Source of the DNA: a virus
Virus record (IMG/VR): IMGVR_UViG_3300044837_000085
Span: 1-64,000 of that record
DNA: 64,000 bases
Direction: 5' to 3' (one strand)
The position numbers were made by a program, and so were the translations under genes. This document shows positions 19,322 through 47,346 of the stretch, piece by piece. Each line of letters starts with the position of its first letter. The stretch's first letter is position 1. The notes under the pieces were generated by a model. The model was not told the DNA's origin and ran no database searches. It was given only the letters and a program-made list of their open reading frames with translations.

Positions 19322-19599
19322 TGGCGCTTGGTGTTTATGAGACTTATGGGGTTGGAGTTCTGGGTAGTGTAGCTATCGAGATTGCCGCAGCGTTGAAATT
19401 AGCTGTGAAGATGGATGGCATATGCCCTCCAATATACAAGCGTCCCTTCTTCGTCGGCCTACGAATAATTTTCGCTCTACTGGCGGCCGGCCCATTGTCG
19501 GTGATGATGGATGCGCCAAGCTATTGGGCAGCATTTTATTATGGTGTTACAGCCCCCGTTCTGTTTGATCGACTGGCGCGCGGGCTACAGCCAGATTAG
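19321..19599 (+). CDS. small membrane protein, 92 aa
   Basis: Three hydrophobic stretches (GVGVLGSVAIEIAAAL, VGLRIIFALLAAGPLSVMM, YWAAFYYGVTAPVLF). Translation is coupled to the 19109 gene. The ends of this gene and of the convergent transposase overlap at 19596-19599. Confidence 0.5.
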   Translation: MALGVYETYGVGVLGSVAIEIAAALKLAVKMDGICPPIYKRPFFVGLRIIFALLAAGPLSVMMDAPSYWAAFYYGVTAPVLFDRLARGLQPD

Positions 19600-20265
19600 C
19601 CGCCAACGTGGCGCTGCCAGTAGCCGGTGAAATCCACCGACTTGCCGCGCTTCATCGCCAGCGCCGCTACGCGGCTCACCTGATCGCCATTCGAGACGCG
19701 GCGGTTATCCTCCCGCCATGAACTTTCCTGCGCATAGCGGAGCAGATACGCGCCAGCGATATGGTGGTGGATGCCGATTTCGGCGCGGCGCAGGCGGCTA
19801 AAATATTCTTCAGCTTGGTTCGTGCAGGCACCGTCAAGGCTGTAAGCCTCTTGATGGTTGATGCGCTTCATTTCAAACCGTTCATGAAGGCCATCCCAAG
19901 ACGCGGCTTCGTCGGCATGAACCGTTGTGCCCCTCGCGATGCGGGCGCGAATGAAGGCGGAGGCTTGGCTTTCGGTATTGAACACGGCGGGCACTGAGTT
20001 GCCGCCGCGCTCGCGGACCACAACCACGACCTTGCGCTTGCCGTTCTGGTTACGCTGCAAGCGGCGATCGCGGCGATAGTCCTTTTGGTTGGCGGGCTTC
20101 ACATAGCCGCCGAAATAGCCGCCATCAACCTCAGCGGTTTTGCCTTCACCGCCGACAACGCGGCCACGCATTTCCTCAGCCATTGCTTCGCGCAGCTTGT
20201 GCAGCAGAACGAAAGCACACTTATAGGAAACGTTCAGATCGCGAGAGAGCGCCAGCGCGGACTTG
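19596..20265 (-). pseudogene. IS1595-family transposase, N-terminally truncated
   Basis: Retains CKSALALSRDLNVSYKCAFVLLHKLREAM, the DDE motifs AEVDGGYFGG, VHADEAASWD and ESSWREDNRR, and the HHHIAG block, but lacks the zinc-ribbon domain. The frame upstream of about 20265 codes for unrelated sequence (up to an ATG at 20357), so a fused start is formally possible. Close to the transposase at 11405-12370. Confidence 0.8.
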
Positions 20266-20278
20266 CAAGCGGCTGCGC

Positions 20279-20686
20279 GAAAATGACCCCATTCACCACC
20301 AAGAACTACTCGGTCGGCAACGCACTCGCGCGCAGCAACGAAAGGATGAGGCGGCAAAATATGTTTTCGATTATCTTTGTGACAATCCCTGCGTCGATTG
20401 CGGTGAGATCAATCCGCTCAAGCTGACGTTCGATCATGTTCGCGGGGTAAAGGTGTGCGATGTCAGCACGGCCCACACAACAAAGCGATGGCCGCTCGCG
20501 CTGGTGCGTGAGGAGATAAGCAAATGCGATGTTCGCTGCTGGAACTGCCATATGGAACGAACAGCCCGTTTGCGCGGATATCGGCGGGTCAAGCTTTGGG
20601 ATGAGCATTGCCGTAAGTTGGCACCGGGTGAAGGTAACGCTCCCTCGTCTTCGGTTTTGGAGACCGCTGCTCTGCTATTGAGCTAA
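20279..20686 (+). CDS. HNH endonuclease, 5-prime end truncated
   Basis: EAAKYVFDYLCDNPCVDCGEINPLKLTFDHVRG with CxxC, then DHVRG, then CDVRCWNCHMERTARLRGYRR: the C-x2-C ... H ... C-x2-C-H arrangement of phage HNH nucleases. Upstream of about 20279 the frame enters transposon sequence, so the start codon is missing or displaced. The 3-prime end of the frame runs antisense across the tRNA-Trp gene. Confidence 0.65.
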   Translation, partial: ENDPIHHQELLGRQRTRAQQRKDEAAKYVFDYLCDNPCVDCGEINPLKLTFDHVRGVKVCDVSTAHTTKRWPLALVREEISKCDVRCWNCHMERTARLRGYRRVKLWDEHCRKLAPGEGNAPSSSVLETAALLLS

Positions 20687-20692
20687 CCCGAT
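20619..20692 (-). tRNA. tRNA-Trp (CCA), last of the array
   Basis: Acceptor ATCGGGT/ACCCGGT, D-arm GCTC/GAGC, anticodon loop CTCCAAA, T-stem GAGGG/CCTTC, encoded CCA. The T-loop AGCGTTA departs from TTCRANN, so it is divergent. Confidence 0.7.
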
Positions 20693-20696
20693 AAAA

Positions 20697-20773
20697 TGGT
20701 ACTGACGCAGTGATTCGAACACTTTCCACGAGATTCACAGTCCCGCTGCTCATTGCCATCGAGCATCGTCAGC
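20697..20773 (-). tRNA. tRNA-His (GTG)
   Basis: Acceptor GCTGACG/CGTCAGT, D-stem GCTC/GAGC, anticodon stem CGGGA/TCTCG with loop CTGTGAA, T-loop TTCGAAT, CCA encoded. The discriminator is A and the base before position 1 is T, so the usual G-1/C73 His identity pair is absent. Confidence 0.75.
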
Positions 20774-20774
20774 A

Positions 20775-20845
20775 TGGTCGCGAACGCGCGTGTCGATCGC
20801 GCCTGACAGCCGTATGAAAACCGTTTCCTCGCCGGAGGGATCGCG
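20775..20845 (-). tRNA. tRNA with CAT anticodon (Met or Ile2)
   Basis: Acceptor CGCGATC/GTTCGCG (one T-T mismatch), short D-arm, anticodon stem CGGTT/GGCTG with loop TTCATAC, T-stem GCGCG/CGCGC, CCA encoded, 71 nt. Compact and divergent, but it fills the gap in the array exactly. Confidence 0.6.
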
Positions 20846-20852
20846 TTGATTT

Positions 20853-20926
20853 TGGCAGCCGGTGACTGAATCGAACAGTCGTTCCAGGATTCAAAGTCCC
20901 GTCTCTTGCCACTAAAGGAACCGGCC
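20853..20926 (-). tRNA. tRNA-Gln (TTG)
   Basis: Acceptor GGCCGGT/ACCGGCT, anticodon stem CGGGA/TCCTG with loop CTTTGAA, T-arm GACTG-TTCGATT-CAGTC, CCA encoded. Confidence 0.85.
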
Positions 20927-20931
20927 ATAAT

Positions 20932-21006
20932 TGGTAGAGCCTGCGGGTGCCGACCCCGCTCCTGCGACTTGAAAGGCCGCGATCCTAGCCGATAGACGAA
21001 GGCTCC
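20932..21006 (-). tRNA. tRNA-Glu (TTC)
   Basis: Acceptor GGAGCCT/AGGCTCT, anticodon stem GCGGC/GTCGC with loop CTTTCAA, encoded CCA. Five bases separate it from the tRNA-Gln gene and from the tRNA-Gly gene. Confidence 0.85.
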
Positions 21007-21011
21007 ATGAA

Positions 21012-21086
21012 TGGCGCGGACTGCGTGAATCGAACACGCTTCACTAGGTTGGAAGCCTAGGGCAACAGCCAATATACCAAGCCCGC
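21012..21086 (-). tRNA. tRNA-Gly (TCC), first of the array
   Basis: Acceptor GCGGGCT/AGTCCGC, anticodon stem CTAGG/CCTAG with loop CTTCCAA, T-loop TTCGATT, CCA encoded. The 3-prime end of the upstream protein gene overlaps it. Confidence 0.88.
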
Positions 21087-23198: not shown

Positions 23199-23942
23199 TC
23201 AGCCTCTCTTTTGAACACCTCGATAAATTTTATCCCTCGTCGCATGAACTACTTTAGACCCACCTCTATCTGGAGGTGGAGCGTCTGTTACTTTTGCTTT
23301 TTCGGTTCGGATATTTCGAATGGGTCGAATTTCTTCGCCCGTCTTCGCGTCCGTTTTTGTTTTCGAGTCGGGCCACCACATATCCGCAAGCGCATCGAGT
23401 CCGTTTCTGAATTTCCACCCCGCTTGGCGAACGTATGGCGTCCACTCGCCATCGAATCTTGGATCATACAATTCGCGAGCCGCAGATTCGATCGACATTC
23501 CCAAAACCGTCACGCGATGAACAATTGCAAAATCGCGCGGATACAAACGTCTCTTGGCTTCGCTCACGGTTTCCGCAGCGAGTAGAAATGTCAGGGCTGG
23601 TGTCGGAGATAATCCTGACGATCCCCTAGCTCTATCAAAGTCCATTGATCCACCGGACGAAGCATAAGTCATATCGTGCGCGCAGCGATATCGATCGCCG
23701 GCCGCGTATTGCAGTTGAGATATCTGCCGACGATTAAACATCGATGTTAAACTATCCGAAACTCGATCGACGATTTCAGTAGATCCATCGAGTCGAGGAT
23801 GACTTACTTCATCACGCTCAGTCCTTGGTCTCGCAGTAGGCTTGGTCTCGCGCTTACGTTTAGTATTTGCCAAAAGCGTATTCCCTGATTTCAAACTTCT
23901 TTGGTCGAATACGCTGACCGAACCTGCCGTGCCATGCCTCAC
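23199..23942 (-). CDS. DUF6456-like protein, 247 aa
   Basis: The middle (MFNRRQISQLQYAAGDRYRCAHDMTYASSGGSMDFDRARGSSGLSPTPALTFLLAAETVSEAKRRLYPRDFAIVHRVTVLGMSIESAARELY) recalls the DUF6456/HTH-like proteins of rhizobial phages. The N-terminus is basic (NTKRKRETKPTARPRTERD). Likely DNA binding. The start is uncertain because the frame continues up to the GGNNN tract. Confidence 0.6.
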   Translation of the reverse strand: MRHGTAGSVSVFDQRSLKSGNTLLANTKRKRETKPTARPRTERDEVSHPRLDGSTEIVDRVSDSLTSMFNRRQISQLQYAAGDRYRCAHDMTYASSGGSMDFDRARGSSGLSPTPALTFLLAAETVSEAKRRLYPRDFAIVHRVTVLGMSIESAARELYDPRFDGEWTPYVRQAGWKFRNGLDALADMWWPDSKTKTDAKTGEEIRPIRNIRTEKAKVTDAPPPDRGGSKVVHATRDKIYRGVQKRG

Positions 23943-23943
23943 C

Positions 23944-24190
23944 TAAACGCGCCGATACCCGGCCTAAGCTTAACTCTCCCCACCGCACCTGCCACAACCA
24001 CACCCATCCTGACCGCACCTGCCGTTACCTACCTCAACACATCGCACCGCATCGCGCCGTGCCCTACCGAACCCCACCTGCCTGACCAGACCATTCCGAA
24101 CCTTTCCTTGCCAAGACGGACCCCACCTCACCTTGCCAGACCGGGCCGGACCAAATCATCGCCCGCCTTACCTGCCTCACCTAGAAGGAT
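23944..24190 (-). repeat. degenerate GGNNN pentanucleotide repeat tract
   Basis: On the minus strand the sequence reads GGTCC GGCCC GGTCT GGCAA and so on, with G or GG at nearly every fifth base for about 245 bp, crossing the space between two genes. The phase shifts once or twice. No stable ORF is kept. A period of 5 cannot be due to codons. Confidence 0.7.
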
Positions 24191-24221
24191 GCGCGCCGCC
24201 CGTAGGCAGCGCGCGTTATCG

Positions 24222-25083
24222 TTATTGGTTTGCCGAAGCGCCGTTCTGCTTGCCCTTCGCCTTGATCGCCGGAAGTTTCTTCATCGCAGCGCTGACTTCA
24301 TCGGACGGAACAACCTTCTCGCGGTTCTTTACTTCCTGCTGGAACCAAGTCAGCAGCTCCTCGGTTTCCGCATCGTAAGTATCTGCGTCTGCGATGGCCT
24401 TGATCTGAGCCGCCCGTCCTTGCGTCTTTTTTTTTTTCACAATGCGGATGAACTCCTCGTCGCGGTCATCGGCTACGCGGAATTTGCCGTAACTCATTCC
24501 CTTTTGCGGACGACCGTCGCCTATGCCAACAATGATGCCGGCGGCGGCAAGGAGGTTGATGACCTGACGCTCCTTGATTAGGCTGGACACGAACGAAACC
24601 TCGATCGTGCAAGCCCACTCAGGGAAGATCGCACGAGTCCGGACGTCCGGCGTCCGCGCCATATCACTGGAGCGGACCATCGCCATGTGAAGCTTTGGAA
24701 CGCCGAACACATTGATCTGCGTCCACGCTTGTCAGGCGAAGCATCTGACTTTTCGACGCGTCAGGAATATCGAGCGCGGCGTTGGCAATCGCCTTTGAGA
24801 AGGTTTCGGACGGTAGATGAACGCGCGAAGGCGTACTGTCATCCCGATTCAGGTAGATCGTATCACGGAATTCAGAGATCGGGTCGTGCTTCAGGTTCGA
24901 TGCTTTTTCAGCCCGGTTGACCGGACCTTTCGGCATCAACAATTCCCGCCGCGCCTTTGCACTGAAGCGGTGCATCAGCAGCGGCGTCGTTCCAACGATA
25001 TTGCAACGCAGACGACCCATTGAGATTTCCTGTATCTCGATTGCCGCTGTCTCTTTCTGTTTAGCCATTGTCATTGTCTCCAT
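24222..25083 (-). pseudogene. conserved phage early protein, apparently frameshifted
   Basis: The first frame METMTMAKQKETAAIEIQEISMGRLRCNIVGTTPLLMHRFSAKARREL...LPSETFSKAIANAALDIPDASKSQMLRLTS ends at 24664. The continuation WTQINVFGVPKLHMAMVRSSDMARTPDVRTRAIFPEWACTIEVSFV...GRPQKGMSYGKFRV lies one frame off and ends at 24222. I recall the two halves as one protein in related phages. The break is near 24720-24735. It may be an indel, a sequencing error or a programmed shift. Confidence 0.65.
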
Positions 25084-25398: not shown

Positions 25399-25589
25399 AC
25401 GGCTCGCTTCGCGATCTGATACCCAATAACGAACGCCGCAACCTTGACCCGGCTCCGTCCCGCTTCTTCATGTGCGAGCCGGATCAGCTTCTGAGTGACA
25501 CCGAGTTTCTTGGCGAGGTATTTTATCTCATGCTTCTCGCTGGAGAGAAGCTTGCGGTCCATTTTGTGTGTTCGCTTCTTCATTGTCAT
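25395..25589 (-). CDS. DUF3606 protein, 64 aa
   Basis: MDRKLLSSEKHEIKYLAKKLGVTQKLIRLAHEEAGRSRVKV fits DUF3606, a small three-helix protein frequent in Hyphomicrobiales and their phages. The LGVTQKLIRLA stretch has HTH character. Role unknown. Confidence 0.75.
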   Translation of the reverse strand: MTMKKRTHKMDRKLLSSEKHEIKYLAKKLGVTQKLIRLAHEEAGRSRVKVAAFVIGYQIAKRAV

Positions 25590-26365
25590 GATCCTTCCGT
25601 TTTAATTATCCAATAGTCCGATCCGTACTTCGATGATCCGAGATAGGCTTGCGGTATGAAGCAGTCACCCTTGCTCCCCCACGTCGCGCTCCACGAATTT
25701 CGTGCCGTGAAGTGATTGGCATGCTGGTTGTAGCCGCAAATATAAACGCAATGTCCGCCCAACATCGCTTCTCCGGTCTTCGGCATCGGCACGATTCCGG
25801 TAGATGCAACAGCATCGCTCTCGAAACTCTCGAATACCGCGAACCCGACGATCACCGGATATCCAGCAGCAAGCGCAGACTTGATGGCGTAGGTTGATAT
25901 CGCTACGCGCTCGTAGCTGATCGCGCGAAACTTCACCGCATCCGCATAAGCGCTCGCTGGCGGCTTGGTTTTGAATTTACCAATCGAGTACGGCCACAGC
26001 TTCTCATGTGCGACGCCAATTTTAGCGGCGCATTTGATCCCATCACGGATCGATGCGCCCGCATCTGATTGAACCGTGCCCTCCATGTTGCGTTCGTCGT
26101 AGTAAAGCTGGAGGCGCGACATGGGAAAATCTTTTTGGCCGGCGTTGATCAGCGCGTGACGAAGCGCGCCGGTTATGCCGTGGCTTGTGCAAGCGCCCAG
26201 GGCACCTTGGTCCATCACTGGCGGGCAATGCGCGCGTAAATCCACAACTGCCGGAATTCTCGCCACAGTCGGCACGTAGAGATGATCGCGCGGATCGCGT
26301 AAATCTCTGATGCAGCCGTACCAGGCGTTGCGATGTTCCGATTTGGTGGTCTTTGATGAAGTCAT
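25586..26365 (-). CDS. papain-like (C1) cysteine protease
   Basis: 259 aa from MTSSKTTKSEHRN; the start overlaps the previous stop (ATGA). The catalytic pattern is complete: MDQGALGACTSHG (oxyanion Gln and active Cys), GGHCVYICGYN (His) and ARNSWSATWGSKGD (Asn), followed by the typical C-terminal GYFxxP-like strand. There is no signal peptide or propeptide, so it should act in the cytoplasm. A protease amid replication genes could process phage or host proteins early in infection; this role is inferred. Confidence 0.85.
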   Translation of the reverse strand: MTSSKTTKSEHRNAWYGCIRDLRDPRDHLYVPTVARIPAVVDLRAHCPPVMDQGALGACTSHGITGALRHALINAGQKDFPMSRLQLYYDERNMEGTVQSDAGASIRDGIKCAAKIGVAHEKLWPYSIGKFKTKPPASAYADAVKFRAISYERVAISTYAIKSALAAGYPVIVGFAVFESFESDAVASTGIVPMPKTGEAMLGGHCVYICGYNQHANHFTARNSWSATWGSKGDCFIPQAYLGSSKYGSDYWIIKTEGS

Positions 26366-26628
26366 GACGATGTTTCCTCTGGTGAGATCAAAGCCCTCGC
26401 ATTTATTGTTGCTGTCGTATCGGAATATCCAGCAGCTTCCCACGTCCGGTAAAAGGCGCACATCTTGCCGCGTTCGAATTCATTCCTGACGCCACCGTGA
26501 AGGCATTCTGTTAATTCACGATCGATAAATGTCTTGAGGTCTTGGCGATATCGCTCGCGTCGATATCCGCGCTTGAACTCGCCGATGAAATCTCGGAACG
26601 CGCTCACGCTGCACTCTCCGGTTTGCAT
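26362..26628 (-). CDS. hypothetical protein, 88 aa
   Basis: Start at ATG 26628 or GTG 26607; the latter overlaps the previous stop. FRDFIGEFKRGYRRERYRQDLKTFIDRELTECLHG is helical and charged. No family. Confidence 0.45.
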   Translation of the reverse strand: MQTGECSVSAFRDFIGEFKRGYRRERYRQDLKTFIDRELTECLHGGVRNEFERGKMCAFYRTWEAAGYSDTTATINARALISPEETSS

Positions 26629-27139: not shown

Positions 27140-28083
27140 GCCGCAGCCTCATCGTCAGAGGATCCGACACGTTCGCCGAAATCATTGAAACCTTCAGCCC
27201 AGAGCGTCGCGAAGTACCAACCGCGGCGCCCGGTAACCCGGCCGTTTTCATCTTTGTGATCGCAAATCTGTGTGCCGTGCCCGGTTCGCTCAAACGAGAC
27301 AGTTTGGTGCGAATTCCATTCTTCGGTGCCCTCGTCTACCCAGACCTTTCCGTTCGACACGATCTGTAGATGGGGAATCAGTTCGTGAGCTGACATCACA
27401 GCGCTATCGCAATAGACCAGCGAGACCATGTCTTCTTTTCGATTAAGCAGCGGCGTACAGGCCGTGGAAATCGTATTTGGCGAAATGCCGGCGGCGAGCC
27501 AGACATCGATCTGATTGAGATCGGGGACCGACCACTTCTTCCCAGATCGGATCGCTGCCAACATCACGCGAAGTGCAAGTGCCTGTTTTTCATGGCCTTC
27601 GTCCAATTCAACCGCCTCTGCAGCCGCAGTGGCTTTGGAAGTGGAATTTGGTTCTTGCTTCTTTGTTTTATCCCTAGGCTTTTTGGGAGGGTTAACCCCA
27701 CCCTTATCATCATTAATCAATTCAGGATTACCACCAGTTGAACCCCAGTCCTTTGCCTGTTGCGCCTTAGCTCGATCTCGAACCATCTTCCTAGAATAGA
27801 TCACCTTGTCTTCGGTGCGGCTGTAAACTCCGGCAACTTCGAGCTCGCACATATATTTCATGACTTCAGGCAGACCGATGCCAGCAAGTTGAGCCAACTG
27901 CTTGTTACTGACGGCGATGCCGTTGTTGATCAGATGCCCGTATGGCTCAGCGTCGTGCATGATGCATAGCATCTCCATCCACAGGCCGCGGGCGCCGATT
28001 GTGCAAAGGCGCAGCTTCGTATTCCCTCGCCAGTTAGCCGGGAAAAACTTGAACCAAGGATGCTTGTCTTTAGGCTTCGCCAC
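27136..28083 (-). CDS. phage replication initiator/replisome organiser-like protein
   Basis: 315 aa. GTG at 28083 overlaps the upstream stop (TAGTG). N-terminal winged-helix part: KHPWFKFFPANWRGNTKLRLCTIGARGLWMEMLCIMHDAEPYGHL, then ISNKQLAQLAGIG. A Lys/Pro-rich linker follows (PPKKPRDKTKKQEP), then a C-terminal domain. This layout is that of O-like phage replication proteins, which bind the origin and load helicase. With DnaA and DnaN in the same operon it points to self-directed replication. No iterons were found inside the gene. Confidence 0.7.
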   Translation of the reverse strand: MAKPKDKHPWFKFFPANWRGNTKLRLCTIGARGLWMEMLCIMHDAEPYGHLINNGIAVSNKQLAQLAGIGLPEVMKYMCELEVAGVYSRTEDKVIYSRKMVRDRAKAQQAKDWGSTGGNPELINDDKGGVNPPKKPRDKTKKQEPNSTSKATAAAEAVELDEGHEKQALALRVMLAAIRSGKKWSVPDLNQIDVWLAAGISPNTISTACTPLLNRKEDMVSLVYCDSAVMSAHELIPHLQIVSNGKVWVDEGTEEWNSHQTVSFERTGHGTQICDHKDENGRVTGRRGWYFATLWAEGFNDFGERVGSSDDEAAA

Positions 28084-28634
28084 TATAGCTTGCTCTCTGC
28101 CCATTCGATGACCTGTTTGGCGCAACCGAGTGGATCTCGCCAAAGTTCAGACCCGGTAAATCTGAAAATCTCATAACCGTTTTCTTGAGCCTCGCGGTCG
28201 CGAGCGCGATCCTTTGCTGCTTGCTCTTTTGTTCGTTCGTGGAAGTCGTGGCCGTCGCACTCGACAATAAGCTTCTTCCAGCCAACGACTCCGGCCCCTG
28301 GATTTCGAAGCCAACTGGCATGCGCGTGAACGATGAAATCGACACGCCAATCTGGAAGCTGCGCCTGCTTCTCGACTATGAGCCATTCACTGGCGTCTTT
28401 ACGAGTTTTGTAGCGTTCGATATTCTCGCTCTTAACGAACACCGCCTTGGTGTACCAAGTGTCCTTTACGTATTCGAGCCGTAAAACGACGGCCGTAAAT
28501 AGAAGCCTCTCGATTGGAGTGTCGCCGTAGTTAGCTAAACCTTCTCCCTTACTACCGCACCTGAATGCCACAGCGCCTGCAACATGGTCTAATATCTGTT
28601 GTTGAAGCAGTTCAAATCCAAAAACCTTTTCCAT
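28083..28634 (-). CDS. PD-(D/E)XK-like nuclease (DUF559/MTES_1575-like)
   Basis: 183 aa. WRVDFIVHAHASW...KKLIVECDGHDFHERTKEQAAKDRARDREAQENGYEIFRFTGSELWRDP contains the VDF...ECDGHxFHE catalytic pattern and the DRxRD helix of Vsr/DUF559-type nucleases common in phages. Start MEKVFGFELL overlaps the previous stop (TGATG). Probable role in recombination or host DNA breakdown. Confidence 0.8.
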   Translation of the reverse strand: MEKVFGFELLQQQILDHVAGAVAFRCGSKGEGLANYGDTPIERLLFTAVVLRLEYVKDTWYTKAVFVKSENIERYKTRKDASEWLIVEKQAQLPDWRVDFIVHAHASWLRNPGAGVVGWKKLIVECDGHDFHERTKEQAAKDRARDREAQENGYEIFRFTGSELWRDPLGCAKQVIEWAESKL

Positions 28635-28864
28635 CACGAAACGACCCCCTCCATTGCGCCAACAGCCTCGCAAGTCGGAGTCCCCTCACCCTCAACCCGA
28701 TCCAACCCCCGCCAGAATTCCGTGCGGAACGTCTCCCGCAATCCGTCCCATTCGTGCCACGTCACCTTGACAAGCCCGCATCGCAAGCACTCGCGCTCCG
28801 TCTTTCTCGGCAGTGCGACTGCGTTTGGGACTCGTGTTGGCTCGCTCCATGTGTGGCGCGTCAT
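28634..28864 (-). CDS. small zinc-binding phage protein, 76 aa
   Basis: MTRHTWSEPTRVPNAVALPRKTERECLRCGLVKVTWHEWDG: CLRCG site in a fold I recall from phage hypothetical proteins. Its N-terminus is repeated in the neighbouring gene at 28861-29109. Confidence 0.6.
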   Translation of the reverse strand: MTRHTWSEPTRVPNAVALPRKTERECLRCGLVKVTWHEWDGLRETFRTEFWRGLDRVEGEGTPTCEAVGAMEGVVS

Positions 28865-46687: not shown

Positions 46688-47346
46688 TTCTTAGAGGCGA
46701 ACCGGCGAAGCTGGCGAGCCTTTACGGCTCCGGCTCCGGCTCCGGCTACGGCTCCGGCGACGGCGACGGCTCCGGCTCCGGCTCCGGCTCCGGCTACGGC
46801 TACGGCTACGGCTCCGGCTCCGGCTCCGGCTACGGCTACGGCTACGGCTACGGCTCCGGCGACGGCGACGGCTACGGCTCCGGCTCCGGCGACGGCTCCG
46901 GCTCCGGCTCCGGCTACGGCTACGGCTCCGGCTCCGGCTCCGGCTACGGCTCCGGCTACGGCTACGGCTCCGGCTCCGGCTACGGCTCCGGCTCCAAAGA
47001 CTATTGGCAAGCCACTATTCTTAACTTCGCGGCTAAATGGCCAGAAGCCCAGCGCGCAAGGCTAACCGACGCGAAGTTAAGCGGAGCAACGATCGCCTTT
47101 TGGCGATCGAGCGACAAGGGTCTCCCGTCAAACGGCGGCGGGAAGATCGAGCCCGCTGCGCCCGGCGTGATCCATACCGCACCAGGGCCACTGCAAACCT
47201 GCCACAGCGGTACGCTGCACGCGACGCTGATCCCACCGAAATGGGAGGGGGCGCGCTGGTGGATCGTCGCGCTTCATGGCGAAGTCGTCGGTGATGAAGA
47301 AAAGTATGGCTGCCTGAAGCGTGAAATCTTGGGCGAGGCGACATGA
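46675..47346 (+). CDS. phage protein with Gly-Ser/Tyr/Asp hexanucleotide repeat domain
   Basis: 223 aa. N-terminus MEPVILRGEPAKLASLYGSG; residues about 17-107 are only Gly alternating with Ser, Tyr or Asp; then SKDYWQATILNFAAKWPEAQRARLTDAKLSGATIAFWRSSDKGLPSNGG and a structured C-terminal domain (GTLHATLIPPKWEGARWW). The repeat could be a flexible linker or phase-separating tract; repeat number is probably variable. I recall similar GYGSG proteins in other phages, all without known function. Confidence 0.7.
   Translation: MEPVILRGEPAKLASLYGSGSGSGYGSGDGDGSGSGSGSGYGYGYGSGSGSGYGYGYGYGSGDGDGYGSGSGDGSGSGSGYGYGSGSGSGYGSGYGYGSGSGYGSGSKDYWQATILNFAAKWPEAQRARLTDAKLSGATIAFWRSSDKGLPSNGGGKIEPAAPGVIHTAPGPLQTCHSGTLHATLIPPKWEGARWWIVALHGEVVGDEEKYGCLKREILGEAT
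46723..46995 (+). repeat. 6-bp repeat array GGC(TCC/TAC/GAC), about 45 units
   Basis: In-frame tandem array coding for Gly-Ser, Gly-Tyr and Gly-Asp units. The unit mix is irregular, and no spacers are present. Susceptible to slippage in multiples of two residues. Confidence 0.95.

What the first reader, a model, noticed from the sequence alone, without database searches (positions are those of the whole stretch)
23944..24190. Degenerate GGNNN pentanucleotide tract on the early-operon strand
For about 245 bp G or GG recurs every five bases with the other three bases nearly free. No codon or known repeat explains period 5. Strand-asymmetric G pairs could form G-quadruplex-like or R-loop-prone DNA, mark a recombination or replication start, or template a binding array.
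Basis: seen in the sequence. Interest (0 to 1): 0.7.

Follow-up and report, generated by a model that had tools for sequence, protein, structure and literature searches.

The report
Phage VIPR guide-RNA array
The odd five-base G-rich tract is an array of guide RNAs of a recently described phage weapon (VIPR, a CRISPR-like system thought to predate CRISPR), sitting just downstream of its own, apparently broken, guide-binding protein gene.

Summary
On the minus strand, 23914-24184 reads as about 54 GGYNN pentamers; the third base is a pyrimidine, not free. Phase is reset mainly by a four-base unit, GGCA. The tract lies 37 bp after the stop of a gene of family phrog_4652.

That family is Vipr (PDB 36pp, E=4.6e-41; fold close to Cas7/Csm3). 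The tract is therefore a vrRNA array of a VIPR system (preprint PMC13142463, 2026), whose guides are GGY/NN repeats with NN read against DNA at a one-base skip.

Independent tests support this. The scanner recovers exactly four arrays around vipr in phage SUSP1. Of 72 loci found by Vipr protein alone, 67 carry an array within 700 bp downstream. In related phages, guides match phage genes (terminase, protease, another Vipr) under the one-base-skip rule and not under other rules.

GGCA/GGCG punctuation delimits modules of mostly 10-11 pentamers and is nearly confined to one Vipr clade (98/104 loci against 1/40). The window's copy has a frameshifted vipr and lacks the clade's usual accessory gene, so it may be broken or trans-acting. 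No convincing target was found for its own guides.

The parts
23914..24184 (-). vrRNA array: about 54 GGYNN pentamers with GGCA punctuation
   Evidence: Phase HMM, about 75-80 nats; autocorrelation
24083..24172 (-). guide module 1, 18 pentamers (possibly two fused guides), NN = AA GG AT TT CC CC CT AA GA GG CC TT AA AA TC AT CT CA
   Evidence: HMM parse
24024..24078 (-). guide module 2, 11 pentamers, NN = GG TC AG AC GC GC GC GT GA AG AC
   Evidence: HMM parse; modal module size of the clade
23994..24019 (-). short stretch of 5 pentamers plus one extra T before a GGCA
   Evidence: Read from the sequence
23929..23989 (-). guide module 3, 12 pentamers with one extra base
   Evidence: Read from the sequence
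24079..24082 (-). GGCA punctuation; others at 24173-24176, 24020-24023, 23990-23993 and 23925-23928
24664..25083 (-). vipr gene, N-terminal part (phrog_4652 positions 2-98)
24222..24710 (-). vipr gene, C-terminal part with the GIGDGRP glycine-rich loop (phrog_4652 positions 128-189), in another frame: the gene is split by one frameshift between about 24700 and 24735
24191..24214 (-). 10-bp GC-rich hairpin with a TACG loop between the vipr stop and the array; role unknown, not general in the clade
   Evidence: 50-nt flank z = -2.8
23199..23942 (-). downstream ORF (phrog_21451, start uncertain; the first part of the ORF overlaps the array); not the accessory gene of this clade

Best explanation
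The tract is the vrRNA (guide RNA) array of a VIPR system carried by this phage. It is transcribed from the minus strand together with vipr. Each GGY triplet is held by one Vipr subunit (a Cas7-like RAMP protein), and the two free bases of each pentamer pair with DNA so that together they spell a target in which every third base is skipped. Bound complexes would silence genes of competing phages. GGCA marks the border between successive guides of mostly about 10-11 pentamers. Shown here: the tract, its grammar, the adjacent Vipr homologue, the clade-wide association, and the one-base-skip code in relatives. Taken from the preprint: RNA expression, RNP formation, DNA binding and repression. Inferred: that this array is transcribed and processed, and that GGCA is the guide border. 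As sequenced, the vipr reading frame is broken and the usual accessory gene is absent, so this copy may be inactive or depend on Vipr supplied in trans.
For: GGYNN grammar. 88 of 109 array-bearing loci carry phrog_4652 in the locus, usually directly beside the array and on the same strand. All 66 aligned members hit phrog_4652. The profile hits PDB 36pp 'SUSP1 Vipr protein' at 4.6e-41. AF2 model pLDDT 89.9, best PDB folds are Csm3/Cas7 at about 3e-6. SUSP1 control: exactly four arrays around its vipr, 1 on one side and 3 on the other, as in the preprint (PMC13142463). Protein-only search: 67 of 72 loci have an array within 700 bp 3' of vipr at a chance rate of under one. Perfect NN matches of 18 or more bases: 6 with skip 1 against 0, 1 and 0 with skips 0, 2 and 3, and 0 for shuffled guides at all skips; the best sense-strand targets have the skip at the codon wobble.
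Against: The window's vipr is frameshifted. The accessory gene of its clade is missing from the window and the rest of the record that was searched (all but the last 614 of 104614 bases). No convincing target was found for this array's own guides: the best, 20-21 of 22, are chance-level or repetitive. No transcription data. The phylogenetic placement rests on the C-terminal half of Vipr.
Confidence: 0.93

Rival explanations
1. Same origin, but a dead remnant: a VIPR locus that lost its accessory gene and its Vipr reading frame, with the array now drifting.
For: Frameshift in vipr while 77 of 80 relatives are covered by one unbroken alignment in a single frame and the other 3 are truncated records or partial matches; accessory gene absent.
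Against: The array is no more degraded than those of its clade (perfect GGY 0.722 against 0.708), and the two vipr halves show one frameshift and no other in-frame stop, so the damage is recent or an assembly error.
Confidence: 0.4
2. A G-rich DNA element (two-layer G-quadruplex or R-loop zone) acting in replication or recombination.
For: GGNNN repeats can in principle form two-tetrad quadruplexes, and the G-rich strand is the RNA-like strand.
Against: G at position 3 is avoided (0.9%) and pyrimidine selected, which a quadruplex would not need; punctuation and linkage to a RAMP protein are unexplained.
Confidence: 0.03
3. A tandem repeat made by replication slippage, without function.
For: Repetitive look.
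Against: Units are nearly all different; TRF finds nothing here; the same grammar recurs in more than 100 unrelated viral contigs beside one gene family.
Confidence: 0.01
4. Protein-coding sequence with a period-5 bias, for example the 226-aa plus-strand ORF 23901-24581.
For: Long open frames overlap it.
Against: All three minus-strand frames have stops inside the tract (3, 4 and 6); the GGYNN grammar itself removes most stops on the other strand; frame-shifting 4-nt units.
Confidence: 0.01

Closest known systems
VIPR systems (Viral Interference Programmable Repeat; PMC13142463, bioRxiv 2026.04.26.720920)
   Same: Vipr RAMP homologue, phage-borne, intergenic GGY/NN repeat RNA next to vipr; one-base-skip target code confirmed here in relatives
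   Different: This Vipr lies in another major clade than the type II SUSP1 Vipr (tree). The array is one continuous run with GGCA punctuation instead of separate guides, each followed by a 3' tail. vipr is frameshifted and the accessory gene missing. It may equal the preprint's 'staggered arrays' (fig. S18), which could not be read.
Class 1 CRISPR-Cas backbone (Csm3/Cas7 RAMPs)
   Same: RRM fold with glycine-rich loop; protein predicted to line a guide RNA at a fixed period
   Different: No CRISPR repeats found here, guide period 5 with only 2 readable bases per unit, a single RAMP, no cas gene recognised among the genes scanned
TRAP (trp RNA-binding attenuation protein) targets (own knowledge)
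   Same: RNA with a triplet plus 2-nt spacer repeated about 11 times, read by a multimeric protein
   Different: Unrelated protein, GAG/UAG instead of GGY, spacer carries no information in TRAP

Membership tests
VIPR | Vipr protein (RAMP homologue with glycine-rich loop) | tested here: met
   phrog_4652 in two frames; family profile hits PDB 36pp Vipr; fold match to Csm3/Cas7 for a close relative. Reading frame broken in this copy.
VIPR | vrRNA of alternating GGY/NN, 9-16 units per guide | tested here: met
   Consensus and HMM; modules of 11, 12 and 18 units, plus one short stretch of 5
VIPR | Array intergenic and next to vipr | tested here: met
   37 bp from the vipr stop to the array start, same strand
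VIPR | Accessory (vap) gene, typical but not stated to be universal | tested here: not met
   Clade's accessory family (phrog_15946) found in 72 of 77 sequences compared but not in the window or in L002-L003
VIPR | Structured 3' tail on each vrRNA (described for the SUSP1 clade) | tested here: inconclusive
   Stem downstream of the array but 3' flank z only -0.5; no tail between modules
VIPR | NN bases specify DNA targets by the one-base-skip rule | tested here: inconclusive
   Met in relatives; no convincing target for the window's own guides
VIPR | vrRNA is expressed and co-purifies with Vipr; complex represses targets | not testable with these tools
   Needs bench work
CRISPR array | Identical direct repeats separated by unique spacers | tested here: not met
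   No such repeats here; units almost all different
G-quadruplex/R-loop element | Function depends on G runs only | not tested
   Position 3 pyrimidine and the GGCA grammar speak against it

The most novel reading that the evidence does not exclude
The four-base GGCA/GGCG unit is a so far undescribed guide-delimiting signal of one VIPR clade: it breaks the pentamer register and so lets one long transcript be loaded or cut as consecutive guides without the tails seen in SUSP1. The window's phage keeps such an array beside a broken vipr and without the accessory gene, as an orphan guide bank read by another element's Vipr.
Probability: 0.25. Interest if true: 0.75.

Novelty: new member of a known kind. 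Interest (0 to 1): 0.62.

Why it matters
VIPR is a 2026 discovery proposed as the forerunner of CRISPR. This locus was reached without prior knowledge of it, from the periodicity alone. It extends the system to a clade far from the characterised SUSP1 type. That clade's arrays independently obey the one-base-skip code against competing phages' genes, including another phage's vipr. They also carry a sharp punctuation rule that predicts where guides begin and end and can be tested by small-RNA sequencing.

Tried and rejected
Fourier test at period 5 alone: weakened by phase resets, replaced by autocorrelation and a phase HMM. Tandem repeat finder: nothing. Rfam on the window: no RNA at the tract; Rfam on 15 related loci: none, so no hammerhead there. 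BLAST of the tract against phages: none. Downstream ORF (phrog_21451) as accessory protein: rejected. Search for close kin of the window's own flanking proteins in IMG/VR: none. Targets of the window's guides: four viral scans and one genome scan; the two 20-21/22 matches sit in a repetitive ORF and in a region of unclear gene content, and about one such match is expected by chance (rough estimate from collection size). Searching host-relative genomes for targets was not possible for a virus record. Genome-wide search for the Vipr subclade gave no confirmed relative. General leader or tail hairpin in the clade: not found for the 5' side; about a quarter of arrays are followed by a strong stem, several with a T run like a terminator. 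Fold of the clade's accessory protein: confident model, no PDB match.

Full report
OBSERVATION. The tract is real. On the minus strand G recurs at lags 5, 10 and 15 with z of 7.5, 6.7 and 5.9, never reached in 5000 shuffles. A phase HMM places it at 23914-24184 with about 75-80 nats; shuffled versions of the tract reach 18, shuffled 64-kb windows give nothing, and 0.9 Mb of other viral DNA gives at most 16. The unit is GGYNN. It is unique in the 104,614-base virus record. TRF and BLAST see nothing, and Rfam has no match at the tract.

A WIDESPREAD FEATURE. Across 210 arrays in 116 of these loci the consensus is G 0.95, G 0.93, C 0.69 or T 0.25 (G 0.009), then two free bases. The dominant in-array phase break is a four-base unit that is GGCA in 165 cases.

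NEIGHBOUR. Arrays usually start within about 15 bases of the stop of a same-strand gene of about 200 aa. A family profile finds this gene in 88 of 109 array loci, usually directly beside the array and on the array's strand. In the window it is the gene at 24222-25083, split by one frameshift. The family is phrog_4652 (66 of 66 members). Its profile matches PDB 36pp, 'SUSP1 Vipr protein', at 4.6e-41. An AF2 model of a close relative (pLDDT 89.9) is nearest to Csm3/Cas7 RAMP proteins.

WHAT IT IS. The only paper found with these terms (PMC13142463) describes VIPR: Vipr protein plus vrRNAs of 9-16 YNNGG repeats whose NN bases recognise DNA with a one-base skip, used between competing phages. The GGYNN grammar and the gene link were derived here before the paper was found. 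As a control, the scanner run on 50 kb of SUSP1 finds exactly four arrays around its vipr, one on one side and three on the other, as the paper reports.

INDEPENDENT TESTS. Searching by Vipr protein alone gave 80 loci; of 72 with 700 bp of room, 67 carry an array within 700 bp 3' of vipr. Two alphaproteobacterial plasmids (Sulfitobacter NZ_CP136687, Paracoccus NZ_CP040759), also found by protein only, carry arrays too. For the code, all guides were scanned against 1.6 Mb of masked loci with 0-3 skipped bases. Perfect matches of 18 or more NN bases were 6 with skip 1, against 0, 1 and 0 with skips 0, 2 and 3, and none for shuffled guides; reversed guides gave one each at skips 0 and 3 and none at skip 1. 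Perfect matches of 20 or more bases occurred only with skip 1 (three cases). The matched genes, judged by their sequence, look like a terminase (its KNGKTE motif), a prohead protease and the vipr gene of two related phages, with the skipped base at the codon wobble; a 19 of 20 match lies in an ATPase.

PUNCTUATION. In the Vipr clade that holds the window's protein (100/100 support), four-base units number 633 in 49 kb and occur in 98 of 104 loci (GGCA 505, GGCG 98). In the other clade, which holds SUSP1, there are 4 in 15 kb, in 1 of 40 loci. Module length peaks at 10-11 pentamers. Many arrays both begin after and end with GGCA. That GGCA separates guides is an inference. It may be what the preprint calls staggered arrays, which could not be read.

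THIS COPY. Relatives in the subclade have vipr, a gene of about 160 aa (phrog_15946, a likely accessory gene) and the array; the window lacks that gene. Its vipr is frameshifted while 77 of 80 relatives are covered by one unbroken alignment in a single frame. Its array is as well kept as the clade's (GGY intact 0.722 against 0.708). So either the frameshift is an assembly error, the damage is recent, or the array is used in trans. Exact scans with its guides gave no convincing target.

VERDICT. A genuine VIPR guide array: a new member of a kind described in 2026, in a clade with its own punctuated array grammar, and with doubtful function in this particular genome.

Noticed in passing
L110:4599-5048 (-): Array of GGTNN with a different punctuation, GGCTA-ATG, in place of GGCA.
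   Followed up: partly
L112:1964-3548 (-): 1.6-kb array in super-blocks separated by a nearly identical spacer of about 40 nt (GCACGGGAGCAGCAGCATCCGGCGYAAAGGGATGGAC); no Rfam match.
   Followed up: partly
L191 guide against L202:3775 and L203:3787: A guide of one phage matches 18 of 18 NN bases in the vipr gene of two related phages: VIPR against VIPR.
   Followed up: yes
L099:910-1374 (+) and relatives (alignment A4): Accessory family phrog_15946: confident mostly helical model with no PDB match.
   Followed up: partly
L125 (Quico), L126 (Donkeykong), L128 (Ecliptus), L129 (Pipp), L127 (Cy-LDV1): Cultured actinobacterial phages and a cyanophage record carry unannotated VIPR arrays in the early region near repressor, antirepressor or excisionase genes.
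   Followed up: partly
window 46723-46995 (+): 273-bp repeat of CGGCTC/CGGCTAC type, period 6 and 42, possibly a Gly-Ser-Tyr coding repeat.
   Followed up: no
window 20622-21086 (-): Cluster of four tRNA matches overlapping ORFs.
   Followed up: no
window 25586-26461 (-) and 28083-28673 (-): Papain-family cysteine peptidase and a DUF559/MTES_1575-type endonuclease among the neighbouring phage genes.
   Followed up: no
window 19596-20357 (-): IS1595/ISXO2-like transposase inside the virus record.
   Followed up: no
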